Shown: one piece after another, positions 1,506 to 20,708 of the stretch
Layout: each line of letters opens with the position of its first letter
Numbering within the stretch: position 1 is the stretch's first letter
Virus record (IMG/VR): IMGVR_UViG_3300022745_000158
Span: 1-20,903 of that record
Source of the DNA: a virus
DNA: 20,903 nucleotides
Reading direction: 5' to 3' (one strand)
Position numbers and translations under genes: made by a program
Notes under the pieces: model-generated
Databases searched by the model: none
Told to the model about the DNA's origin: nothing
Seen by the model: only the letters and a program-made list of their open reading frames with translations

Positions 1506-2840
1506 ATGGCAGAGGAACGCTGTGCGTATTCTTTTACTGACCGCACACAAAATACCATCAAATGTGCAGTGCATGGCGAGCGAGAGGTGCTGAAGCCGAG
1601 CACACGCAAGCAGATCCTTGCGGAGCTCGTCAGGGCAGGAAAATGGAATGGTCAGGCATTGCCTGAGATTGATGCAGCGAAAGCAGAAGAGTCTGCGCCC
1701 GAGCACAGGACAGAACAGCTTCCCGCCGTCACAGACCGTCCGACAATCCAGACGGACCTCGTTGAATACCAGACGCCGGAAGGTCAGCAGGTCAGCATCT
1801 CCGTGCTGATGTTTCGCCAGATGATTTGCCCACAAGCCAATGACAATCAAGCGCGCTACATGCTCGGTTGGTGCGCTCACAATCGGATAGATCCATTTGG
1901 CAATGAAGCGTACTTTTCGATCGCCAAAGAACGAGAGAAAGACCGGGCGGGGAATGAGACCGGCAATTGGCTAGAGAAACCCTTAATCCAGGTCAGCAAG
2001 GATTGCTGGCTTCGGCGCATGGAGCGGCACCCACGCTTCTCACATTATGATTCCGGGCTCACGATTGAAATCAGCGCCAAACGGCTACAATCAGCCATTC
2101 TGGGCGGCATGGGCGATGACTATTTGATCGCCCCGGAACTGAAGGCACTGCTGTTGCAGGCCATGCTCGATGGTAAGCTCGCAATTCCTGGCGGTCTCGA
2201 AGGGCGCCTCGTCGTGCGCAAGCGTGGGCAATACTTAGGCCCAGACGAGAATCTTGAAGGAGCCTGGACAAAAATTTGGCGCACGGATCGGCCGGAACCC
2301 ATGCTCTTTGAACTCAATTATGAAGGCTGGGCCAAGGACAATGTGTTCTGGAAGAACATGGGACCTTTTATGATATGGAAAAGTGGGCTCAAGAACGGCA
2401 CCAGGCAAGCCTTCCCCGAACTCTCCGGCCTCATCGCTCTGCCCGAGGCGCGCGACGGGCTCGATCCCGCGGCCATCGCCGATGCCGAATTTACACAGCG
2501 GTGCACAGTCGAGCAGTTGCGGGCACTCCATGCGGCTGGCGCAAAAGTGCCCGCGCCCATTGGTCCTCTCCGCCATGCGCACCTGCACGATCTTGCGACG
2601 ATCAACTACGATGGGCGCGGACTCGCGGAGCTGACCATTTTCGAGATGAGCCAGCTCATCGAGTTGATCGAGAAGGCAGCAGAGGACGATCAAGCCACGC
2701 TGGAGGCAATCGCCAGCGACCTGAAAACAGCAGACACGGACTTTAGCGAGGTGGACAATGGGAGCCTTGAGACAACTGATGGAGCAACATGCGGATCTGA
2801 CATCAGCATCACAGACGGAGAATATCGACCCGTCGCCTGA
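1506..2840 (+). CDS. RecT/Bet-family phage single-strand annealing recombinase
   Basis: The product of 444 residues resembles Bet/RecT annealing proteins, which coat single-stranded DNA and promote annealing in phage recombination and replication. Supporting stretches are the region near QARYMLGWCAHNRIDPFGNEAY, the core LIQVSKDCWLRRMERHPRF, the later KRGQYLGPDENLEGAW, and GTRQAFPELSGLIALPEA, which matches the usual 'ALRxAFP-L-G' ending of the fold. Extra N-terminal (about 90 residues, with Cys pairs and Arg/Lys) and acidic C-terminal segments flank the core. The ATG at 1506 has AAGGAG eight bases upstream. A VRR-NUC nuclease further down the operon could be its nuclease partner; no RecE or lambda-Exo homologue is seen. 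Confidence 0.8.
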   Translation: MAEERCAYSFTDRTQNTIKCAVHGEREVLKPSTRKQILAELVRAGKWNGQALPEIDAAKAEESAPEHRTEQLPAVTDRPTIQTDLVEYQTPEGQQVSISVLMFRQMICPQANDNQARYMLGWCAHNRIDPFGNEAYFSIAKEREKDRAGNETGNWLEKPLIQVSKDCWLRRMERHPRFSHYDSGLTIEISAKRLQSAILGGMGDDYLIAPELKALLLQAMLDGKLAIPGGLEGRLVVRKRGQYLGPDENLEGAWTKIWRTDRPEPMLFELNYEGWAKDNVFWKNMGPFMIWKSGLKNGTRQAFPELSGLIALPEARDGLDPAAIADAEFTQRCTVEQLRALHAAGAKVPAPIGPLRHAHLHDLATINYDGRGLAELTIFEMSQLIELIEKAAEDDQATLEAIASDLKTADTDFSEVDNGSLETTDGATCGSDISITDGEYRPVA

Positions 2841-3261
2841 AGACGAGGGCGAGGATGAGAGACAGGAATTCACTGAGACTCTCGAAGCCGCCCGGTTTGC
2901 CATTTTCCAAAACCTCGGGCGGCTGAAACCATCCTTCTGTGAGGATCCGGCCTATCTCAGGCAGAATACGGAAATTGTACGCCTGCTCACAGAGGGTCTG
3001 GAACTGTGCATGATCGCTGAGCAGGATGCCGTTGCGGCCACTCCGCGCGCCCTGGTGCGCCAGGCCTATTGGCTCGATGTCCGATACGGCGGTGGCTGGG
3101 AGGCGATCGCCAAGGAGTCACCCGCAGCGGCGCGGGCGTTGCAGATTATGAATCTCAACGGCCTTTTGAAGGGTCTGGTGCAGGAGTTGCGAGAAGAAGG
3201 GCAGCCGCGACGACCACCGCCGAAGATCGCCCCTCACAGAAAGAGCGATGAAGTCGCATAA
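2758..3261 (+). CDS. hypothetical protein overlapping the recombinase 3' end, 167 aa
   Basis: The family is not recognised. The ATG at 2758 is preceded by GAGGTGG at a good distance; an internal ATG at 2779 is the alternative. The first 83 bases overlap the recombinase gene in another frame, longer than the 4-8 base overlaps elsewhere in the operon. The N-terminal 40 residues are acidic and polar; residues about 45-150 look helical with a conserved-looking core (RALVRQAYWLDVRYGGGWEA); the tail is basic and Pro-rich. Position between the recombinase and replication genes suggests a role in DNA metabolism, which is inference from context only. Confidence 0.7.
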   Translation: MGALRQLMEQHADLTSASQTENIDPSPEDEGEDERQEFTETLEAARFAIFQNLGRLKPSFCEDPAYLRQNTEIVRLLTEGLELCMIAEQDAVAATPRALVRQAYWLDVRYGGGWEAIAKESPAAARALQIMNLNGLLKGLVQELREEGQPRRPPPKIAPHRKSDEVA

Positions 3262-3284
3262 TCCTACGAAAGGAAAGACAGAAT

Positions 3285-3635
3285 ATGGACACAGTAAAAC
3301 TCAACACATTGGCTGGTGGTGCTCTCTTAGAACGCTTCGACGACGCCTGGCAGGAAGTGCTCGATAACATTCAGGACATCGACACGGAGGCAAAAGACAG
3401 GCGCGAGATTACCATCAAAGTCTCCATCTCCCCCGACAGCGCGCGAGACACAGGGTCTGTGAAAATTGCCGTGACGAAAAAACTAGCGGGTCCGCGCCTC
3501 GTAGAAACGGTTATCTTCCTCGGCTTCGACAACGCCGGAAGGGCGACCGCAGCGGAGCAGGAGAGAACCCTCAACCTCTTCAGTCAGACGGTGCAGAAAC
3601 AAGAGCCCACACTCCAGGAGATGAAACGTGCTTAA
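3285..3635 (+). CDS. phage 'replication terminator protein'-like, 116 aa
   Basis: The product starts MDTVKLNTLAGGALLERF and continues through TEAKDRREITIKVSISP to a C-terminal beta-rich part. This layout (short 'LAGGALxExF' helix, then 'KREITIKxxFxP' strands) matches small proteins commonly annotated as replication terminator proteins in phage recombination/replication operons. The name is inherited annotation, and I know of no firm biochemical role. The start has GAAAGGA upstream (about 3270). It overlaps the next gene by eight bases, and the pair commonly travels together, supporting a shared function. Confidence 0.7.
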   Translation: MDTVKLNTLAGGALLERFDDAWQEVLDNIQDIDTEAKDRREITIKVSISPDSARDTGSVKIAVTKKLAGPRLVETVIFLGFDNAGRATAAEQERTLNLFSQTVQKQEPTLQEMKRA

Positions 3636-4341
3636 AGAACTGGTTGATGCCATACAGGATGGAACGAAAGCGGAGATCAAAACTGTTAACGGGATAGAGT
3701 ATGTGACCAGGGAGGTTTTTATTCCTCCCCCCGAGCCTTCGCTGGCTACTCTCAACGTTCACACGTTGACCGGCTTTCTTGACTACCTCAAGACGCGCAC
3801 ATCGGAATTAGAGAATAAGGAACCATTCATTCACGTCGAATCTCCTACGATGGTCTCTCTCCTTGACATTCCCCTCATGCGCCATAGAAAACGAGATTAT
3901 TTCTGTACCGCTACCGCTATTACCTCTTCCGGCTTCAAGTTCGGCCAGTGGCAGGATGTAGAAAACTTTATCATTGCCATGCAGAGTCATTTTGTGAGGA
4001 CAGACGAGGTCAGCCTGATTCTACAACTGGTCGGCAATTTGCGTGATGAAGTGATTCGCACCAGTGAGGACGATGGCATCACGCAAATCGCGGCTATACG
4101 AAAAGGCGTCGCGCGTGTTGCCTCTGCGGAGGTGCCGAATCCCGTCAGTCTCCGACCCTACCGCACATTTACCGAGATTGAGCAGCCTGCGTCCTCTTAC
4201 GTGCTCCGTCTCAAGAGCGGGGACGCGACACCCTCCGTGGCGCTCTTTGAGATCGCGGACAATCGCTGGCAACTAGAGGCGATCACCTCTCTCCGCTCCT
4301 ATTTGGCGGACAAGGTCGGTGATGTGAAGATTATTGCGTGA
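3628..4341 (+). CDS. conserved phage protein, DUF2303-like, 237 aa
   Basis: This conserved phage protein is recognised by pattern: an N-terminal helix plus NGIEYVTREVF, then LNVHTLTGFLDYLK, HVESPTMVSLL, FKFGQWQDVENFIIAMQS, and VEVPNPVSLRPYRTF in the variant AEVPNPVSLRPYRTFTEIEQP, a run typical of DUF2303-like phage proteins next to RecT. The role is unknown; co-occurrence suggests recombination or DNA metabolism. Translation starts at GTG 3628, inside the end of the preceding gene, with AGGAG seven bases upstream, implying coupling. Its length is in line with the family as I remember it. Confidence 0.72.
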   Translation: MLKELVDAIQDGTKAEIKTVNGIEYVTREVFIPPPEPSLATLNVHTLTGFLDYLKTRTSELENKEPFIHVESPTMVSLLDIPLMRHRKRDYFCTATAITSSGFKFGQWQDVENFIIAMQSHFVRTDEVSLILQLVGNLRDEVIRTSEDDGITQIAAIRKGVARVASAEVPNPVSLRPYRTFTEIEQPASSYVLRLKSGDATPSVALFEIADNRWQLEAITSLRSYLADKVGDVKIIA

Positions 4342-5624: not shown

Positions 5625-5687
5625 AGAATGCTCCCGGATACTCTTTCGGTCCTGATTATCCGTTCAACAGGTGAAAGGATTTGGAAG

Positions 5688-6638
5688 ATGCCCAGGATTA
5701 GGCGATACTATCCTGCTAGTCATACCCTTAACCGCGATCCTGAGTTCATCACTTTACGGAGACGCTACGCCGATTGGATGGGCTATGTCTGGCACGAGAT
5801 GCTTGCCTGGGGAGACCATACAGAGGGTGAATTAAAGGGAGATATAGCGGAGATTGCCCTGACATTGGCGGCAGTTTCCCTGCAGATCTACCCGAGAAGG
5901 GCGGCACATGTCATCGAGAAGGCGTTTACTTATATGCAAGAATGCGAATGGATTAGGATAGAAAGTAGACGCATTGTCATACTTAACCACGCGAAATTTC
6001 ACAACTCTAAGGAAGAAGAAAAAACCCCAGATAGGAATTCTAAAAATCCCCTCCTAACAACCGAACAACCAACCAACCTTTCTAATAAGACAAATACTTC
6101 TTATGAAGAAGTATTTTCGGAGAGCCAGAAAACTTCTGCCTCTCCGAACGGCTCCGCTACCCCGAGTGAACCAACCACACAAGGCGCGGAAAAAGAGCGG
6201 ACCCCGAGCGAAGCAACCGCACAAGGTCCACCGGCTACGATCCCGAGCGAAGCAACCGCACAAGATCGTAGTTCGAAGGCTCCCCGAGCGAAGCAACCGC
6301 ACAAGGAGCATGACTGGCCGCCAGACGGACTATTTGTCAAATCGTTCTTAGACCGGCAGCAGTATCTTGCGCCTTTTTTTACGCAAGTAGACCTGCTTTG
6401 TCTCAACGATTCGGTCTGGTGGGAAAATTTGAGCACGGCAGTAAACGGCTTGAGCGAAGAACTCCTTGACCAGGAATTCGCCCTAATGGCTAACTGGCTG
6501 CGCGATAATGCAAGACGCCACCCCACGCCCAATGGGCTCCGCCGTTTCGTCGGAGATTGGCTCAAAAGAACGTATGAATACGAAAGGAAAAAACCGTGGC
6601 TTTCCGAAAAAAGAGCAGCGCGGATAGTCAGGAGATAA
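5688..6638 (+). CDS. phage replication initiator-like protein with embedded origin
   Basis: The N-terminal ~115 residues (MPRIRRYYPASHTLNRDPEF, then RRRYADWMGYVWHEML and helices ending with RRIVILNHAKFHN) look like the winged-helix domain of phage replisome-organiser/DnaD-like initiators, which bind origin DNA and recruit helicase. A low-complexity linker (Asn/Ser/Thr/Pro/Gln, about residues 115-210) follows, carrying four DNA repeats, and then a helical C-terminal domain with several Trp that may contact a helicase or loader. The ATG at 5688 is preferred for AAAGGA eight bases upstream; an upstream in-frame ATG at 5628 would add 20 unusual residues. The organisation (DNA-binding N-domain, iteron-bearing linker, C-domain) parallels lambda O. 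The 3' end overlaps the next gene (GTG at 6596). Confidence 0.72.
   Translation: MPRIRRYYPASHTLNRDPEFITLRRRYADWMGYVWHEMLAWGDHTEGELKGDIAEIALTLAAVSLQIYPRRAAHVIEKAFTYMQECEWIRIESRRIVILNHAKFHNSKEEEKTPDRNSKNPLLTTEQPTNLSNKTNTSYEEVFSESQKTSASPNGSATPSEPTTQGAEKERTPSEATAQGPPATIPSEATAQDRSSKAPRAKQPHKEHDWPPDGLFVKSFLDRQQYLAPFFTQVDLLCLNDSVWWENLSTAVNGLSEELLDQEFALMANWLRDNARRHPTPNGLRRFVGDWLKRTYEYERKKPWLSEKRAARIVRR
6092..6116. repeat. 11-bp-arm palindrome in A+T-rich tract before the iterons
   Basis: Arms AAATACTTCTT (6092-6102) and AAGAAGTATTT (6106-6116) form a perfect inverted repeat around ATG. It lies in the most A+T-rich stretch of the initiator gene (about 6000-6118), next to the iteron array, where an origin unwinding element would be expected. 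An intrinsic terminator is unlikely because it sits inside a coding sequence with no following T run. Confidence 0.55.
6161..6305. other. candidate replication origin: four 23-bp iterons
   Basis: Four copies of a 23-bp repeat, consensus CCCGAGCGAAGCAACCGCAC then AAG, lie at 6161-6183, 6203-6225, 6242-6264 and 6283-6305. Copies 2-4 are identical; copy 1 differs at three positions. Start-to-start distances are 42, 39 and 41 bases. The last distance breaks the reading frame, so copies 1-3 encode PSEATAQ-type residues while copy 4 encodes PRAKQPHK. Identity kept across two frames means the DNA, not the peptide, is conserved. Iterons inside the initiator gene next to A+T-rich DNA match the lambda-type origin plan. 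Confidence 0.72.
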
Positions 6639-6958
6639 CTCGCTGCGACGATTGTTTCGACCGCAAAAACCAGCTCCGCCGGCACCTGCACTTTCTGAAG
6701 TTTGCCGATGAGGGGGCGCTCGGCGGACACTTACGCGGGCAATACGGCGAGGCGGCTGAATTCGATGGTACGATCGGCGTCATCCTTGCCTGGGTGCGGT
6801 CGATTCAGGCCAATTATAGCGACTTCGTAGACAATGACGGCGCACGATTGCCAGCCTGGAAAGCCTGGGTCATGACGTATCATGCGGCGGCACGCGAAGA
6901 TCAGACGCTGCAGGCACCACGCACCGAGCAGGGACGGCTCTTTGCTGCGAAAGTCTGA
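6596..6958 (+). CDS. hypothetical protein after the initiator, 120 aa, possibly extending to 7120
   Basis: GTG at 6596 has AAAGGA seven bases upstream and overlaps the initiator by 43 bases. The product has an N-terminal CDDC pair followed by His-rich residues (RRHLHFLKF), then helices with Trp (GVILAWVRSIQ, ARLPAWKAWVMTYHAA). It ends at TGA 6956-6958, but the same frame then runs open for 53 more codons (DRLAAAYPRDISPSV and onward to ARGES) and stops at 7118-7120 exactly where the next gene can begin (TTGA overlap at 7117). The TGA may be a nonsense mutation, a sequencing error or a read-through codon. The family is not recognised; a helicase-loader role would fit its place after the initiator but is unsupported. 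Confidence 0.6.
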   Translation: MAFRKKSSADSQEITRCDDCFDRKNQLRRHLHFLKFADEGALGGHLRGQYGEAAEFDGTIGVILAWVRSIQANYSDFVDNDGARLPAWKAWVMTYHAAAREDQTLQAPRTEQGRLFAAKV

Positions 6959-7116
6959 GACCGTCTTGCCGCCGCTTATCCTCGAGATATTTCCCCTTCT
7001 GTGCGCGACGAGTTTCTTGCGGCGCTGAACGTGGGAGAGATCAAATGGTCACAGTCTGTGATGCCAATGATGGAGCAGGTAGGGAACGTTATTCCCTTAC
7101 GAGCAAGAGGGGAAAG

Positions 7117-8100: not shown

Positions 8101-8166
8101 ATGAGCTACCGCCGGCGGCGGAAGCAGAGACGACGCAAGATGAAAGAATTTAGGGGGCGAAGATGA
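8101..8166 (+). CDS. 21-aa arginine-rich peptide ORF
   Basis: ATG 8101 follows AAGGTG and the TGA at 8164-8166 overlaps the ATG of the next gene at 8163 (ATGA). The peptide begins MSYRRRRKQRRRKMK and has ten Arg and three Lys in 21 residues. Arginine-rich peptides of this kind can bind structured RNA (the lambda N arm and HIV Tat are precedents) or bridge nucleic acids. Placement between coupled genes argues for translation, but the length makes coding status uncertain. Confidence 0.45.
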   Translation: MSYRRRRKQRRRKMKEFRGRR

Positions 8167-8576
8167 CAAGGCCACGAGAGTCTAACGGTAGGCACGTGAG
8201 AAGTGCCACGACCATTGCCAAATATCTCCATGCCGAAGGGTTTACGGATTATGTCGCCAATGGCGTTGAGAGCTACTGGAGATATCAAGCCGGGCTGAAT
8301 ATCAGGCGACTGCGCCAATTGGAGGAGCTCGAAAAAGAACTTTCTCGCGTGATGCAAGTGCTTCCGATCGGGGATCGGCTTATCATCGGTCGCTTTATTG
8401 GCATTCACAAGAAAATGAGCTTTGATACTGGGCTCACCATTGGCCTGCAGGCGTTTGCGCAGAGATGCGACACGGTGCTGAGGGAAGAAAAGAAAGAGAC
8501 GGGAAAACCAATGGGGAGCGCAGAAGAGCCCCCGCCGAAAGCGCCCGAGTCATACAGCCAGGCGGGCGAGGCGTAA
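8163..8576 (+). CDS. hypothetical helical protein, 137 aa
   Basis: AGGGGGCG precedes the ATG at 8163, which overlaps the Arg-rich ORF. The product starts with a basic stretch, then has long helices (SATTIAKYLHAEGFTDYVAN, RRLRQLEELEKELSRVMQVL), a hydrophobic segment (IGDRLIIGRFIGIHKKMSF), and another helix (TIGLQAFAQRCDTVLREEK) before a Pro/Glu-rich tail. The overall look is an all-helical oligomeric or DNA-associated protein. I do not recognise the family. Confidence 0.62.
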   Translation: MTRPRESNGRHVRSATTIAKYLHAEGFTDYVANGVESYWRYQAGLNIRRLRQLEELEKELSRVMQVLPIGDRLIIGRFIGIHKKMSFDTGLTIGLQAFAQRCDTVLREEKKETGKPMGSAEEPPPKAPESYSQAGEA

Positions 8577-8724: not shown

Positions 8725-8741
8725 AAATGAAAGAAGGAGAC

Positions 8742-9548
8742 ATGACCAAAAATAAACCGTCCGTTGGTATCTGGCAGCGCTACACCGTGCGGTGGGACTT
8801 TTCCACGCCCATCTTTGGCTCGTTGCCAGTGGCGAAAGAAACGCTTGCACCCTTTGTCGAGCGTGCGCTCAAAGAAGGCAAAATCAGACCTGTGACGATC
8901 ACACAGACAGACGCTGGCGTGGTCGAAGTGCGCCGGGAGGGTATCTCCCTGGATGTGCTGCGGCAGGAAAAAATCGACGAACTGCTAGAGCAACTCCCGA
9001 CGGAAGAGGAGATGATCGAAGAGCGCAGCCTGCAATTCTGGCGGCATGACGGCCTGCTCTGTTTTCCTGGTGGCAATATCCGGGCACACCTCAAAGAGTG
9101 CGCCCGGACGCTCTCCTCGCTCGTGCTCCCGAAGCCGGCCAAGGGCAGCGGCAATCGCTCCCTGTCCATTCGCGGGGTCAACGGGCTCTATGTGACCGAG
9201 GAGTGGGTGCCGATTACGCGCGCCGGCCAGCCCGTAACGCAGCCGGACGATGCGGTAGAATTCTTTGTCCACACGACCAACCCGCGCACCGGCGCGCCGA
9301 TGAACGCCATCAAAAAGGTCGAGTCACTGGCGGCCGGGACCCAACTTGCGTTTACCCTGCAAGTGCTGGGCGGGATCGTGAGTGAGGAAGAGCTGGATAT
9401 GATCCTGCAATATGGCGCCTTGCACGGCTTCGGCCAGGAACGCTCGCGCGGCTATGGGCGCTATGTCTACACCGTCGAGCAGCAGGTCAAGCTCACGACG
9501 AAGACGCGGACCCGGCCCAACGGTGCCGCGGCAGAGGCGTCTGCGTAA
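8742..9548 (+). CDS. RAMP-superfamily-like (Cas7-type motif) phage protein
   Basis: The 268-residue product shows two marks of RAMP proteins (the ferredoxin-like RNA-binding fold of Cas5/6/7 and Csm/Cmr subunits). LCFPGGNIRAHLKECARTL (from residue 106; FPGG 108-111) matches the 'IPGSSxKGxLR' helix of Cas7-like subunits, and GFGQERSRGYGRY (229-241) matches the C-terminal G-rich loop. An N-terminal strand (YTVRWDFSTPIFG) and a Glu-rich helical insert precede these. Similar uncharacterised proteins occur, from memory, in other phage genomes, and no CRISPR array or cas1/cas2 is nearby. ATG 8742 has AAGGAG only two bases upstream; ATG 8727 is the alternative. A hairpin (8693-8724) lies just before it and a repeat tract just after. 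RNA binding is inferred. Confidence 0.6.
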   Translation: MTKNKPSVGIWQRYTVRWDFSTPIFGSLPVAKETLAPFVERALKEGKIRPVTITQTDAGVVEVRREGISLDVLRQEKIDELLEQLPTEEEMIEERSLQFWRHDGLLCFPGGNIRAHLKECARTLSSLVLPKPAKGSGNRSLSIRGVNGLYVTEEWVPITRAGQPVTQPDDAVEFFVHTTNPRTGAPMNAIKKVESLAAGTQLAFTLQVLGGIVSEEELDMILQYGALHGFGQERSRGYGRYVYTVEQQVKLTTKTRTRPNGAAAEASA

Positions 9549-9880
9549 AGACGACGAGGTGTGACTTGACATGCAATGAGATGCCGTGACGGCGAGTGTT
9601 GTCGTGTTGTGCTCTGCTTTGTTGTGACGGCGAGGTGTGACGTGCGGTGCCGTGTCCTGGGGTGCTGTGACGGCGAGTATTGTCGTGTTGTGTTCTGCTT
9701 TGTCGTGACGGCGAGGTGTGACGTGCGGTGCCGTGTCCTGGGGTGCTGTGACGGCGAGGAGTGCCCTGGCTTGAACTGAGGTGCCGGCGAGGAGTGGTTT
9801 GTTTTGCTATGAGGTGTAGTGTTTTGACGTGACGCCGAGTAGTGCGGTGGTTTGATGTGATGTGTCGTGCCGTCGCGATC
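9549..9880. repeat. G/T-rich tandem-repeat tract of about eight units
   Basis: This is the main gene-free stretch of the early module. The plus strand is strikingly G/T-rich. A core GTGACGGCGAG recurs at 9586, 9624, 9667, 9705 and 9748, with diverged copies near 9551, 9781 and 9829, at steps of 38, 43, 38, 43, 33 and 48 bases. The two 81-base super-units 9586-9666 and 9667-9747 differ at three positions, so this is a recent duplication. Between the cores the sequence is low-complexity (GTGTTGTG-like). It is not a CRISPR, because the 'spacers' are also repeated. A role as a strand-asymmetric RNA, a protein-binding array or a recombination site is open. Confidence 0.75.
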
Positions 9881-9894
9881 TTTCCTTTCAACGT

Positions 9895-9914
9895 GGGCGG
9901 GACCGCTCCCGCCC
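9895..9914. promoter_or_regulatory. 8-bp G+C hairpin before the 9936 gene
   Basis: Arms GGGCGGGA (9895-9902) and TCCCGCCC (9907-9914) close a four-base loop, nine bases before the AAGGAG at 9923. There is no T run, so it is a poor intrinsic terminator; it could stabilise the 5' end of the following message or end the repeat-tract transcript in part. Confidence 0.45.
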
Positions 9915-9935
9915 TTACTTACAAGGAGTGTGTAT

Positions 9936-10256
9936 ATGGCAGAAGAGAAAAAGTTTACGCTGGTCACCGAGCAGGGTGTCGCGGAGTTCCGTGACCATCT
10001 CGCCCAGGGTGCCATCAACGGGAGCCTCACCTCCAAGCAGCTCGACGCCAGCAATACGCTCATCAAGGGCGTCTATGCGGGCGAGACCGTGCGGCTCAAG
10101 TATCTCAATTTTCTCTTTGATTTTTTCAAGAAATCGGGATCCGACCAGGAGGAAGTCCAACGCCGCGTGATTGGCGCTATGCCAAAGTTTTTCAGCCGGA
10201 CCCCGGAGATGTTCGCTTTGCCCGTGCCGTCGAAAGAAACCAAATCTGCTGCCTAA
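9936..10256 (+). CDS. hypothetical protein, 106 aa
   Basis: The ATG at 9936 has AAGGAG (9923-9928) seven bases upstream; upstream in-frame starts lie in the repeat tract and are rejected. The product begins MAEEKKFTLVTEQGVAEFRD and contains LIKGVYAGETVRLKYLNFLF and a basic-acidic helical end. It looks compact and helical, and no family is recognised. It is the last rightward gene before the convergent junction and stands apart from the others behind the repeat tract, so it may have its own control. Confidence 0.65.
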   Translation: MAEEKKFTLVTEQGVAEFRDHLAQGAINGSLTSKQLDASNTLIKGVYAGETVRLKYLNFLFDFFKKSGSDQEEVQRRVIGAMPKFFSRTPEMFALPVPSKETKSAA

Positions 10257-11038: not shown

Positions 11039-13123
11039 CTACTTGACAATGCCCTCATTGACTAGATGCGCGAGGTTCGCGCCCTCATTGGCGAGCGTGG
11101 GTTTCACGGTTTGCTCGTTGACCAGCCGGAGCACGTTGGGTCCGGTACTGATCGGCTGACTGAGCATCATCAGCAGCATGTTGGGCGGGTCACTCTGTGC
11201 GGTTCTCGCACTCCTCTGCGGCAAAGGAAAATCGAGGGGGCGGAAAGGTGCGACAGGCGGAATTGCAGTCAGGGACCCGGTCAGGAGATTCGGCGCTGCC
11301 CACTCTGGTCGCACTGCCCGCTTGATTGGAGTCGGCCAGTCATCCTGTGCAAATGGTACCGGCACGGCTGGCGCTGCAGCCAGGGTGGTATCGAGGAGGT
11401 TTTGCGGATCGTCAACTCGCTGTGATCTCTTTGCTGAAAGGGGCGGCCAGTCTGTTTGCCGGAATGGCGCGGGTACCGGGGCCAATGTCGAGAGTAAGAG
11501 ATTCGGCGCGATTTCAGACTGTGGGGCCCGTCCTGTCGATCGAGGTGAGGAAAAATCAACAGGAAGAAACGGCGGCGCTAACCCCGGCGTTAAGAGGAGG
11601 TTCGGGGCGAGGTCTGCCGATTGCACGCCCCTGCTTCGCGCCGGTATCGGCCAGTCATCCTGATTGAATGGGGCAACTACCGGGGCGAGCGTCGTCAACA
11701 GCAAATTGGGAATGCTCTCCGCCTGCACTGCTGGCCGTCTGGGTGGGAGCGGCCAATCCTGCCCGCTCAAGGGCGCAGCGGTGGGTAGAGCCGGTGCCAA
11801 GGTCGTTGAGAGTAGATTAGGCAGGTCTGCCGAGAAAGGCTGCGCTCTCCCCCGTAGCGGCGGAAAATCGAGCAATCGGAAAGGAAGGACCGCAGGAGCC
11901 GGGGTCAGAGTCGTCAGCAGCAGATTTGGTACGGCCTCATCCCGCAACGCTCTGCATTTGGCTACAGCCGGCCAATCATCCTGATGAAAGGGGTGGGCTA
12001 TGACCACCGGGGCCAACATTGTCCCGAGGAGATTCGGAGGGACATCCGCTTGTGGACCTGCTCGCCTGACAGAGAGAGGCCAGTCATTCTGGCCAAACGG
12101 CGGCGCTAATCCCGGCGTCAAGAGAAGGTTCAGCGGATCGTCAGCTCGCTGCGCTTTCTTTGCGACAGGCTGCGGCCAGTCATTCTGGTTGAACGGTTGG
12201 GCTATGACCGCCGGGGCCAGAGTCGTCAGCAGCAAGTTCTGCGGATCTGCGTGAACAGGCCGTGCCAGCGCTCGTGAGAGCGGAAAATCGACCGGCGTAA
12301 ACGGGACCGCGATGACCGCTGGCGTGAGGGTCGTCCCGAGCAGATTCGGGAGTATGTCCGCCTGGGGCAGTGCGCGCCGAGCGGGAATCGGCCAGTCAAT
12401 CGGGACAACCGGTGCTGACGGGAGTGCCAGTGTCGAGGCGAGCAGGTTCGGCGGATCCGTTTGGATTGGTCGGCCAACCGCTCGCACTGGCGGAAAATCG
12501 ACAGAGAGAAACGGCGGGGCAAGCCCTGGAGTGAGGAGGAGATTCTGGACACCCTCCGCCTGCGGTATCGCTCGTCTTCCCGGACTCGGCCAGTCCGTCT
12601 GGCTGAACGGCACTGGCGCACGCGTGAAAATGACCAGGTTCGGTGCGCCCTCATCCTGCTGTGCTTTCTTCGCGACAGGTGCCGGCCAGTCGTCCTGATT
12701 GAATGGGGGCGTCAGTCCTGGCGTTATGAGCAGGTTCGGCGGGCCGTCTTGCGATGGTGTCTGCCGTGGTGCCGGACTCGGCCAATCCTGCTGACGAAAC
12801 GGCACCGGCGCCAGCGTCGTGGTGAGGAGATTGGCCTGTGCATCGTATCGGTAGCTGACCGTCCGGCTTGGCAGCGGCCAATCATCCTGGCTGAATGGCG
12901 GCATCGGCGCCGGCGCCAGCGTCGTGAGCAGAAGATTGGGCGGCGGCGCTTCCTGTTTCGGCGCGGCCGGCCGAGCGGGAGTCGGCCAGTCGGTTTGGTG
13001 GAATGGGGCAGGAGTTGGCGCTCCCGCCAGGACGGTGAGCAGGAGGTTGGCGACAACTTCGACGACCGGCACCCACGGGGGAGGCTTCGGCGTGATGATC
13101 GGTGGTCGAAAGATGGTCGCCAT
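11039..13123 (-). CDS. 694-aa Pro-rich tandem-repeat protein
   Basis: Almost the whole protein is about 18 imperfect units of 31-37 residues plus a degenerate nineteenth. Each unit runs PNLL-x-T-x-L-A-P, a short Pro/Val linker, PF-x-Q-x-DWP (sometimes DFP), then P-x-x-RR and a Gln/Ala/Asp link. The Asp-Trp/Phe-Pro is nearly invariant. The N-terminus is Pro-rich with no obvious signal peptide; the C-terminal 40 residues switch to LVNEQTVK and LVNEGIVK, a short unrelated repeat. It sits in the late operon and may be a fibrous tail or surface protein. The start follows the GIY-YIG stop by three bases, with only a weak ribosome-binding site. The family and function are not recognised. Confidence 0.72.
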   Translation of the reverse strand: MATIFRPPIITPKPPPWVPVVEVVANLLLTVLAGAPTPAPFHQTDWPTPARPAAPKQEAPPPNLLLTTLAPAPMPPFSQDDWPLPSRTVSYRYDAQANLLTTTLAPVPFRQQDWPSPAPRQTPSQDGPPNLLITPGLTPPFNQDDWPAPVAKKAQQDEGAPNLVIFTRAPVPFSQTDWPSPGRRAIPQAEGVQNLLLTPGLAPPFLSVDFPPVRAVGRPIQTDPPNLLASTLALPSAPVVPIDWPIPARRALPQADILPNLLGTTLTPAVIAVPFTPVDFPLSRALARPVHADPQNLLLTTLAPAVIAQPFNQNDWPQPVAKKAQRADDPLNLLLTPGLAPPFGQNDWPLSVRRAGPQADVPPNLLGTMLAPVVIAHPFHQDDWPAVAKCRALRDEAVPNLLLTTLTPAPAVLPFRLLDFPPLRGRAQPFSADLPNLLSTTLAPALPTAAPLSGQDWPLPPRRPAVQAESIPNLLLTTLAPVVAPFNQDDWPIPARSRGVQSADLAPNLLLTPGLAPPFLPVDFSSPRSTGRAPQSEIAPNLLLSTLAPVPAPFRQTDWPPLSAKRSQRVDDPQNLLDTTLAAAPAVPVPFAQDDWPTPIKRAVRPEWAAPNLLTGSLTAIPPVAPFRPLDFPLPQRSARTAQSDPPNMLLMMLSQPISTGPNVLRLVNEQTVKPTLANEGANLAHLVNEGIVK

Positions 13124-13126
13124 TTT

Positions 13127-13909
13127 TTAGAGGCTCGCTATGATCCGTCTTGCGTAACGTTCTCGCATCTTCATCAGGTTCTTGTCATGATGACGCAGAT
13201 AGGATTGCCGCTTCTGCTCAAGTTGTGAGGCGCGTTGTTCGGGTGTCATCGTGGCGCGCCTCTGCTTACGCAGTTCGTTCGTTCTGGCACGATGGGCAAT
13301 ATCATAGGCGCGTTTCTCTTCTTTATGAGCCGCCATGTATTCCTGTTGCTGTACAAGCCTTCTCTCTCTGGTGCGCTCAGCATAGCGAGCGGCCCGCAGC
13401 CGCCGCGCCTCCCGTTGTTCCGGTGTCTCCGCCTCATAGATCGCCGAGACGCGCAACGCATTGCAGGCGCGGCAGATACGATCGTTCTTGCTATTCCGGT
13501 AGGTGTTTTCCTCCGTGTATTCATGCCCCCGTGGACAATGTGTGATGAGGGCGGCACGGGCAGAGTGAATTGCTTTATGCCGCAGGAGTTGTTCTAGAGT
13601 ATATTTCGACCCTGCCCGCGATCTTGCTAACGGGCAGACATTAAATACTGGGTTAAGATTGTCTATATATTCTTGCTCCTTCGCGAGCAATTCAGACGGT
13701 TCACACTCCTCGATTATCCAAAAACGAAAAGTCGCCTCATCATATTTCGTCCAAGCGTTTTGCAGATATGGCGAGTGATGTTTTCCGCTTCTTAGCAATA
13801 AACGATGCTTAGACCATCGGGAATGAACACTCTTACTGCTCCCAATGTAATAGTTCTGACAATCTATCTGCTCAATCACGTAAATCCCACATTTTACCTT
13901 CGACGCCAT
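13127..13909 (-). CDS. GIY-YIG homing endonuclease
   Basis: The N-terminus carries the GIY (residues 8-10) and YIG (21-23) motifs, the catalytic Arg31 and a Glu in LLAKEQEYID (about 78), all in the canonical order, ending NPVFNV. A likely zinc finger follows: Cys125, His129, Cys146, Cys149 in CPRGHEYTEENTYRN and then CRAC. The rest is a very basic, Arg-rich helical region (about 160-255) suited to DNA binding. Free-standing genes of this kind cut a target allele and spread by repair. AGGAGG precedes the ATG at 13909. It is co-oriented with the structural genes and probably sits as an insert between 13123 and 14061; its codon use and A+T content differ visibly. Confidence 0.88.
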   Translation of the reverse strand: MASKVKCGIYVIEQIDCQNYYIGSSKSVHSRWSKHRLLLRSGKHHSPYLQNAWTKYDEATFRFWIIEECEPSELLAKEQEYIDNLNPVFNVCPLARSRAGSKYTLEQLLRHKAIHSARAALITHCPRGHEYTEENTYRNSKNDRICRACNALRVSAIYEAETPEQREARRLRAARYAERTRERRLVQQQEYMAAHKEEKRAYDIAHRARTNELRKQRRATMTPEQRASQLEQKRQSYLRHHDKNLMKMRERYARRIIASL

Positions 13910-17773: not shown

Positions 17774-17816
17774 CTGCCGCGCACTTTTCACTGAGGACAC
17801 CATGAGGAGGTGTGTC

Positions 17817-18452
17817 ATGCCGAAAGCCTATATCTTTTCTCCCGGGCAAACTTTTAATCGCTGGACCGTCTTGTCTCAGGTTCCATCTAGAAATGGCCAA
17901 ACCTGGGGTTTGTTTCAGTGTCAATGTGGAACGATACAAGAAAGGGCAGCTAAGGATATCTGTAATAATAGGTGCAAGAGCTGTGGGTGTTTGCAGCGAG
18001 AAATCACTGTAGCCCGCAACATCCAGAGAACAACACATGGAGACTCGGTCAATTGTACTACCTCGCCTGAGTACAATATTTGGCGTGGGATAAAGTTGAG
18101 AACCCTGAATCCAAATGACCAGGCCTTTCCACGTTACGGGGGCAGAGGAATCACTATCTGCGACCGCTGGAAAGATTCTTTTGAGAACTTTCTTGCTGAC
18201 GTAGGCCGCCGGCCGGGACCGGAATATTCGATCGACCGCTACCCGGATAATGACGGTAATTATGAGCCGGGGAATGTCCGCTGGGCAACCCGGGAAGAAC
18301 AGGCAAACAATAGACGAAGTAGCCGCTTTCTTACCCATAAGGGACTGACCTTGACGGTTGTACAATGGGCGAGATTTCTCCATATCAATCATACAACGCT
18401 TCACGAGAGACTTGCGAGCGGCTGGTCTATTGAGAGAGCCCTGACACGGTAA
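17817..18452 (+). CDS. HNH-type homing endonuclease (phage AP2/HNH-like)
   Basis: ATG 17817 has AGGAGG six bases upstream; ATG 17802 would overlap the ribosome-binding site. The 211-residue product has a Cys-rich zinc part (FQCQCGTIQER, CKSCGC), then the phage HNH-like core SPEYNIWRGIKLRTLNPN, FPRYGGRGITICDRWKDSFE, and SIDRYPDNDGNYEPGNVRWA. It ends in a helix-turn-helix-like tail (WARFLHINHTTLHERLASGW). The family contains intron-encoded and free-standing homing endonucleases. It lies on the plus strand against the surrounding leftward late genes, so it is an insert with its own expression. Confidence 0.82.
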   Translation: MPKAYIFSPGQTFNRWTVLSQVPSRNGQTWGLFQCQCGTIQERAAKDICNNRCKSCGCLQREITVARNIQRTTHGDSVNCTTSPEYNIWRGIKLRTLNPNDQAFPRYGGRGITICDRWKDSFENFLADVGRRPGPEYSIDRYPDNDGNYEPGNVRWATREEQANNRRSSRFLTHKGLTLTVVQWARFLHINHTTLHERLASGWSIERALTR

Positions 18453-20042: not shown

Positions 20043-20708
20043 ATGGCTATTCAATCTCTTACCCCACCATTTGAAGTCGGGCAAGTTTTTACGCGCCTTA
20101 CAGTTCTGACCCCAGGAATACCAATGTCTCTCTGTCAATGCAATTGTGGAAACACTCTTTTTGTTCGCAATTGGCATCTGAAGTCTGGTAATACGCGAAG
20201 TTGCGGGTGTTTGAATAAAGAGCGAGTATGGCAAAGTAATATAACGCATGGTCAGAGTAGGGGAGGAGGATACACAAAAGAATATGGGGTCTGGGTAAAT
20301 ATGAAGGCTCGTATCCTTCCTTCTTATGCGCATCCAGAACGCTATTACGATCGTGGGATAAAGGTCTGTGAAGGGTTGCAAACCTTTGAGAATTTTTTTG
20401 CCCTGCTCCACGAGAAACCAAGTCAAAAACATTCGCTTGATCGCAAAGATAACAATGGTCATTATTCGTGTGGGCGTTGTCCAGAGTGTTTGACAAGACA
20501 ATGGCCGATGAATGTAAGGTGGGCAACCTCGGCACAACAACAAGACAACAGAAGCGTCACTATCTGGATTACCTATCAAGAAGAAACACGAACGCCTCGG
20601 CAATGGGCAAGTCATCTTGGCGTCAACTTCATGCTGATCTATCGTCGGCTTCGTGATGGGTGGTCTATCGAACGCGCCCTGACGACTCCGGTACGACATT
20701 ATCCCTGA
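20043..20708 (+). CDS. second HNH-type homing endonuclease
   Basis: The 221-residue product is a diverged paralogue of the 17817 gene: the zinc part (LCQCNCGNTLF, SCGCLNKE), YGVWVNMKARIL, SLDRKDNNGHY and NVRWATSAQQQDNR, then the helical tail ending WSIERALT. It carries an extra Cys-rich insert, SCGRCPECLTRQW, between the catalytic-type core and NVRWAT. AAGGAG lies eight bases before ATG 20043. It again lies on the plus strand between leftward genes (transglycosylase and zinc-ribbon protein). Insertion of a free-standing homing gene is the likely origin. Confidence 0.8.
   Translation: MAIQSLTPPFEVGQVFTRLTVLTPGIPMSLCQCNCGNTLFVRNWHLKSGNTRSCGCLNKERVWQSNITHGQSRGGGYTKEYGVWVNMKARILPSYAHPERYYDRGIKVCEGLQTFENFFALLHEKPSQKHSLDRKDNNGHYSCGRCPECLTRQWPMNVRWATSAQQQDNRSVTIWITYQEETRTPRQWASHLGVNFMLIYRRLRDGWSIERALTTPVRHYP

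What the first reader, a model, noticed from the sequence alone, without database searches (positions are those of the whole stretch)
8742..9548. Phage protein with RAMP/Cas7-type motifs outside any CRISPR locus
The FPGGNIRAHLKECARTL segment and the GFGQERSRGYGRY loop match the two most diagnostic motifs of RAMP subunits. In this phage early operon there is no CRISPR array, cas1, cas2 or cas10, yet the gene is followed at once by a G/T-rich repeat tract. It could be a stand-alone RNA-binding protein, an anti-CRISPR-like mimic of an effector subunit, or a phage-specific RAMP role not yet described.
Basis: partly seen in the sequence, partly recalled or inferred. Interest (0 to 1): 0.72.

Follow-up and report, generated by a model that had tools for sequence, protein, structure and literature searches.

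The report
Phage RNA-guided (VIPR-type) silencing locus
This phage carries a single CRISPR-like protein beside a row of short five-letter-repeat guide RNAs, which matches the recently described VIPR systems that phages are thought to use to shut off rival phages, but its guides are packed in an unusually compact, CRISPR-array-like layout.

Summary
ORF 8742-9548 encodes a genuine Cas7-type RAMP: the AlphaFold model's best 50 PDB matches are all class-1 CRISPR Cas proteins. The tract at 9551-9877 is not low-complexity noise. It consists of 8 units of 5-8 pentads (51 pentads, NN-K-TG) separated by an 8-nt repeat, ACGGCGAG, with every unit length a multiple of 5. About 100 related phage or prophage loci (gut Clostridia, Hydrogenobaculum, others) have the same pairing: 96 of 102 have a 5-nt-periodic tract beside the gene, against 1 of 7,664 control windows. 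In alignable pairs of arrays the periodic G is about four times more conserved than other Gs. This matches the VIPR systems of an April 2026 preprint (PMC13142463): a stand-alone ancestral RAMP plus vrRNA guides (NNGGY pentads) that bind dsDNA through a noncontiguous code and repress rival phages. It is therefore most likely a VIPR system. It differs from the described type II in its pentad consensus and in its punctuated repeat-spacer array; three other Viprs (L247, L259, Microcystis phage Mae-JY09) share that layout. No target could be identified, and transcription was not tested. Whether the preprint's seven types already include this layout could not be checked.

The parts
8734..8739 (+). 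ribosome-binding site AAGGAG before the RAMP gene
   Evidence: direct reading of the sequence
8742..9548 (+). vipr-like gene: 268-aa stand-alone Cas7-type RAMP
   Evidence: AF2 model (mean pLDDT 77, core above 90); all 50 listed best Foldseek hits are class-1 CRISPR Cas proteins; family profile hits type VII Cas7 at E 6e-5 and Csm4 at 2e-3
9063..9113 (+). motif FPGGNIRAHLKECARTL (residues 108-124): RAMP strand plus helix motif, aligned with QIKGFFKD in gut homologues
   Evidence: alignments
9426..9464 (+). glycine-rich loop GFGQERSRGYGRY (residues 229-241)
   Evidence: G229 and G239 are invariant over 78 homologues; aligns with CGVGDWRPRFGRF of the SUSP1 Vipr
9551..9877 (.). punctuated pentad array (candidate vrRNA guide array): 9 punctuation copies and 8 units; coding strand of the RNA not determined
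   Evidence: 5-nt periodicity
9551..9558 (.). punctuation 1 ACGACGAG
   Evidence: other copies of ACGGCGAG (with variants) start at 9589, 9627, 9670, 9708, 9751, 9784, 9832 and 9870
9559..9588 (.). unit 1: 6 pentads GTGTG ACTTG ACATG CAATG AGATG CCGTG
9597..9626 (.). unit 2: 6 pentads
9635..9669 (.). unit 3: 7 pentads, identical to unit 5
9678..9707 (.). unit 4: 6 pentads; duplicate of unit 2 with 3 substitutions, all in the NN positions
   Evidence: 81-bp tandem duplication
9716..9750 (.). unit 5: 7 pentads, identical to unit 3
9759..9783 (.). unit 6: 5 pentads
9792..9831 (.). unit 7: 8 pentads
9840..9869 (.). unit 8: 6 pentads, closed by degenerate punctuation CCGTCGCG 9870-9877
9895..9914 (+). 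8-bp G+C hairpin GGGCGGGA-CCGC-TCCCGCCC between the array and the next gene; no T-run
   Evidence: direct reading of the sequence
9936..10256 (+). 106-aa ORF after the array, unknown function; position compatible with an accessory (vap) gene but no evidence for it
   Evidence: no convincing family match

Best explanation
The locus is a phage-encoded VIPR-type RNA-guided DNA-binding system. The 268-aa RAMP (Vipr) would oligomerise along a small RNA read from the adjacent array, one subunit per 5-nt repeat. Three positions of each pentad (K-T-G, or its complement) would be held by the protein, and the two hypervariable positions would pair with DNA, each pentad reading 3 nt of target with the third skipped. 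The bound complex would block transcription of a competing phage, satellite or prophage. In this locus the guides are short (5-8 pentads) and laid out as a CRISPR-like array with 8-nt punctuation. SHOWN here: the RAMP fold (predicted), the array anatomy, its co-occurrence with the gene across the family, selective constraint on the periodic G (in related arrays), and the same punctuated layout in three relatives. INFERRED from the VIPR preprint by homology: transcription and processing of the array, RNP formation, dsDNA recognition by the 1-nt skip rule, and repression of rivals.
For: RAMP fold: Foldseek best hit is a type VII CRISPR complex chain at E 1.4e-6, probability 1.0, and all 50 listed are class-1 Cas proteins; profile hits type VII Cas7 and Csm4. 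Array: 51 NN-K-TG pentads; units of 30,30,35,30,35,25,40,30 nt. Association: 96/102 homologous loci against 1/7,664 control windows. Constraint: periodic G changed at 3.9% against 16.1% for other G in 9 alignable array pairs. Positive control: the published VIPR phage SUSP1 has a 195-aa protein flanked by NNGGY tracts with the same 5-nt signal, and its G-loop aligns with the family profile (E 4e-4 but probability only 34%). Mechanism: PMC13142463.
Against: No natural target was found: scans with units 3 and 7 gave chance-level hits and there is no self-target. No direct sequence-level family match. The consensus NN-K-TG is not the canonical NNGGY. Units have 5-8 pentads against 9-16 in the type II vrRNAs, and no structured 3' tail was seen. 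Transcription of the array is untested.
Confidence: 0.85

Rival explanations
1. The RAMP binds its own array RNA (or the mRNA that carries it) for autoregulation or RNA sequestration, without DNA targeting; the pentads are protein-binding sites and the variable bases are free to drift.
For: Strict 5-nt periodicity is explained by protein footprint alone. No target found.
Against: Many different units per array, and bounded modular units with punctuation, look like a library of guides rather than repeated identical sites. The homologous SUSP1 system is reported to be DNA-targeting.
Confidence: 0.08
2. The tract is a DNA element (for example a site bound by a phage protein, or a recombination or packaging site) and its nearness to the RAMP is only positional.
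For: The tract lies in an early operon with a RecT-like annealing protein.
Against: The tract follows the RAMP gene across about 100 loci in unrelated phages, on either side of the gene.
Confidence: 0.04
3. The protein mimics a CRISPR effector subunit (anti-CRISPR-like decoy) and the tract is neutral repeat expansion.
For: The Cas7 fold is real. The 81-bp tandem duplication shows that expansion happens.
Against: Repeat expansion does not yield unit lengths that are all multiples of 5 with varied content, nor constraint on the periodic base in relatives.
Confidence: 0.03

Closest known systems
VIPR systems (Vipr + vrRNA), type II of Escherichia phage SUSP1 (PMC13142463; KT454805)
   Same: Phage-encoded stand-alone RAMP of roughly 20-30 kD with a G-loop; flanking non-coding tract of pentads with constant and hypervariable positions; same lag-5 and lag-10 signal.
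   Different: Consensus NN-K-TG instead of NN-GG-Y; 5-8 pentads per unit instead of 9-16; 8-nt punctuation instead of a long structured tail; one contiguous array of 8 units; an extra insert in the N-terminal half of the protein.
Vipr-like relatives found here: L247 (IMG/VR 3300005265_000120), L259 (3300010398_000002), Microcystis phage Mae-JY09 (PP395641)
   Same: Grouped with the window protein (L247 and L259, 97/94 support, long branch); all have punctuated pentad arrays beside the gene.
   Different: Constant bases CC on the gene strand (GG on the opposite strand); punctuation CATAATTGAC, GTCACGAC or (C)CGAC; L259 has two arrays with about 70 units.
Type VII Cas7, Csm3 and other class-1 CRISPR Cas7/RAMP proteins
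   Same: Fold and position of the two conserved motifs.
   Different: No cas1 or cas2 found and no CRISPR repeat array in the 72-kb contig; single-gene system in a phage; guide made of 5-nt repeats rather than a contiguous spacer.

Membership tests
VIPR system | stand-alone RAMP with RRM core, G-loop and thumb | tested here: met
   Cas7-type predicted fold and G-loop; the thumb was not examined separately
VIPR system | encoded in a phage or provirus, minimal locus, no CRISPR array | tested here: met
   IMG/VR tailed-phage contig; no Cas1, Cas2 or CRISPR-type repeats
VIPR system | flanking tandem pentad tract alternating constant trinucleotide (GGY or related) with hypervariable NN | tested here: met
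   51 pentads NN-K-TG, positions 1-2 near-random; consensus is related to, not identical with, GGY
VIPR system | vrRNA of 9-16 repeats with a structured 3' tail (type II) | tested here: not met
   units of 5-8 pentads, 8-nt punctuation, no excess structure
VIPR system | Vipr binds vrRNA and dsDNA by the 1-nt skip rule | not testable with these tools
   needs expression and binding assays
VIPR system | natural targets in competing phages or prophages | tested here: inconclusive
   only two units could be scanned and both gave chance-level hits
VIPR system | vap accessory gene | tested here: inconclusive
   neighbours 8163-8576 and 9936-10256 have no family match
CRISPR-Cas class 1 | cas operon with CRISPR array and adaptation genes | tested here: not met
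CRISPR-Cas class 1 | Cas7-type RAMP fold | tested here: met

The most novel reading that the evidence does not exclude
A distinct, so far undescribed VIPR type in which many short noncontiguous guides (5-8 pentads) are stored as a CRISPR-like repeat-spacer array with 8-10-nt punctuation and a changed constant code (K-T-G or D-C-C), up to about 70 guides in one phage: an array layout intermediate between single vrRNAs and CRISPR arrays.
Probability: 0.4. Interest if true: 0.8.

Novelty: new variant of a known kind. Interest (0 to 1): 0.62.

Why it matters
VIPR is proposed as the ancestor of CRISPR. A subclade whose guides already sit between short repeats, with dozens of guides per phage, would show how a multi-guide memory-like array could arise without cas1/cas2. 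It would also offer a natural variant code (NN-K-TG) to compare with NNGGY in working out how Vipr reads RNA.

Tried and rejected
Sequence-level family searches of the protein alone (Pfam, PHROGs, PDB phmmer) found nothing significant; NCBIfam and PADLOC gave only weak Csm4/Cmr1 hits. Target search by the 1-nt skip rule: unit 7 gave 7 exact hits and unit 3 gave 88 in IMG/VR, both about what chance gives; the cluster of about 20 unit-3 hits is one conserved SPEGRVT peptide in a single phage protein family and no other unit hits the same contigs convincingly. An apparent excess of unit-3 hits is those same fetched loci, so it was discarded. Self-targets: none. Hammerhead or other Rfam RNA: none in L107 or L022. 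The repeated element near L022's array is a pentapeptide-repeat gene, not part of the array. Strand of transcription by folding energy: no consistent trend over 21 arrays. Related phages sharing the terminase: no Vipr match in 17 records, most of them fragments. Minus-strand ORFs across the tract (9467-10066, 9493-9891) rejected as genes: the tract has period 5, not 3.

Full report
WHAT IS THERE. Alone it matches no Pfam, PHROG or PDB sequence. Two weak relatives in annotated phages (Hydrogenobaculum phage 1 and human-gut phages) opened the family. Profile-type searches then gave 128 relatives in IMG/VR, of which 80 were kept, and 10 in MAG contigs, mostly Clostridia/Oscillospiraceae. The shared core is F.P..G.P...QIKGF.K...RPLRAQT.QGERV.LA.SE...LDYG...GIGQWRNSGKGRF. 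The window is 99.99% identical to part of a 72-kb tailed-phage contig.

FOLD. An AlphaFold2 model on 78 homologues has mean pLDDT 77 and pTM 0.70, with much of the core above 90. The best 50 Foldseek matches in the PDB are all class-1 CRISPR Cas proteins: type VII, Csm, Cas7-11/gRAMP and type IV complexes; the best has E 1.4e-6 and probability 1.0. TM-scores are modest (0.3-0.44 by query length), as expected for a model with disordered inserts. A profile of the family hits type VII Cas7 (E 6.4e-5) and Csm4 (E 2e-3) over the C-terminal G-loop region. The RAMP reading therefore stands.

THE TRACT. Directly after the stop codon, positions 9551-9877 split without remainder into nine 8-nt punctuation copies (ACGGCGAG; the first, seventh, eighth and last are variants) and eight units of 25-40 nt, each a whole number of pentads ending in TG. 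Over 51 pentads, positions 1 and 2 are close to random, position 3 is G in 61%, and positions 4-5 are TG. TG-N3-TG occurs 44 times against 10.8 +/- 2.8 in shuffles. Units 2-3 were duplicated as units 4-5 (an 81-bp tandem repeat); the three substitutions since then all lie in positions 1-2, while unit 3 and unit 5 are identical. That last point is only suggestive (three of three).

CO-OCCURRENCE AND CONSTRAINT. Of 102 loci with a homologue, 96 have a strong 5-nt-periodic tract within 900 nt of the gene, downstream or upstream; the same statistic is reached by 1 of 7,664 control windows from other phages. Three of the six exceptions (L018, L078, L093) are homologues lying at or near a contig end. 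In nine pairs of related arrays that still align, G with G at both -5 and +5 changed in 3.9% of cases against 16.1% for other G and 16.3% for other bases. The periodic base is thus under constraint and the rest is variable.

COMPARISON WITH KNOWN SYSTEMS. A full-text search led to PMC13142463 (bioRxiv 2026.04.26.720920), which describes VIPR: phage-encoded stand-alone ancestral RAMPs (Vipr) with vrRNAs made of pentads (GGY constant, NN hypervariable), binding dsDNA with a 1-nt skip per repeat and repressing competing phages; seven types, with "GGY/NN or a related consensus" and several array layouts. As a positive control I read SUSP1 itself: the 195-aa ORF at 28474-29061 (-) is flanked by NNGGY tracts, the same lag-5 and lag-10 signal appears, and its G-loop aligns with the family profile. 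That profile match is weak by itself (E 4e-4 for one pair, probability 34%); the combination of fold and array carries the argument. That ORF was identified here by position, size and flanking tracts, not from the preprint's supplement.

WHAT IS DIFFERENT. The window protein's nearest kin by tree are L247 and L259 (97/94 support, but with long branches); Microcystis phage Mae-JY09 was found with both of these as query. All have punctuated arrays: L247 has eight copies of CATAATTGAC separating units of exactly 5n+3 nt built from NN-D-CC pentads; L259 has GTCACGAC-type punctuation with two arrays and about 70 units; Mae-JY09 has (C)CGAC punctuation with mostly 29-nt units. In the gut and Hydrogenobaculum arrays that I read I saw no such punctuation. 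On the strand opposite to the gene, L247's pentads read GG-H-NN, close to the canonical GGY-NN; the window's read NN-K-TG on the gene strand (G/T-rich like SUSP1) or CA-M-NN on the other. Which strand is transcribed is unresolved, and folding energies do not settle it.

TARGETS. None found. Only two units are long enough for an IMG/VR scan. Unit 7 gave 7 hits and unit 3 gave 88, at chance level; about 20 of the latter are one conserved peptide in a single phage protein family. The phage's own genome has no target.

VERDICT. Very probably a VIPR system, hence a known kind; the punctuated, CRISPR-like array and changed pentad code make it a variant. I could not open the preprint's supplement, so I cannot exclude that this layout is one of its seven types (for example the "staggered arrays").

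Noticed in passing
L109:17677-18390 (-) (72-kb parent contig G001, about 57.7-58.4 kb; outside the window): A second RAMP in the same phage: Csf3/type IV Cas5-like (PADLOC E 2.4e-47, NCBIfam Csf3 E 2e-17 below cut-off), beside an ORF that looks ParB-like by eye (no Pfam match), an ABC-ATPase/acetyltransferase protein and a PAPS-reductase (CysH-like) gene.
   Followed up: partly
window about 6203-6303, inside ORF 5628-6638: Three copies of a 20+-nt repeat (CCCGAGCGAAGCAACCGCAC) spaced about 40 nt inside a gene weakly like replication initiator O: possible origin iterons.
   Followed up: no
L259 (IMG/VR 3300010398_000002), 1850-3950 and 5850-7000: A phage with two very large punctuated pentad arrays (about 70 units) around a Vipr gene that is followed, with overlapping stop/start, by an ORF reading like a winged-helix protein (by eye), a candidate accessory gene.
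   Followed up: partly
window 11039-13123 (-): A 694-aa ORF made of degenerate repeats NLLLTTLAPxPxPFxQxDWPxP; no function assigned.
   Followed up: no
window 13127-13909 (-), 17802-18452 (+): A GIY-YIG homing-type endonuclease (Pfam GIY-YIG 8.8e-10) and an HNH endonuclease; ORF 20043-20708 (+) looks similar to the latter by eye. Several selfish endonucleases in one phage.
   Followed up: no
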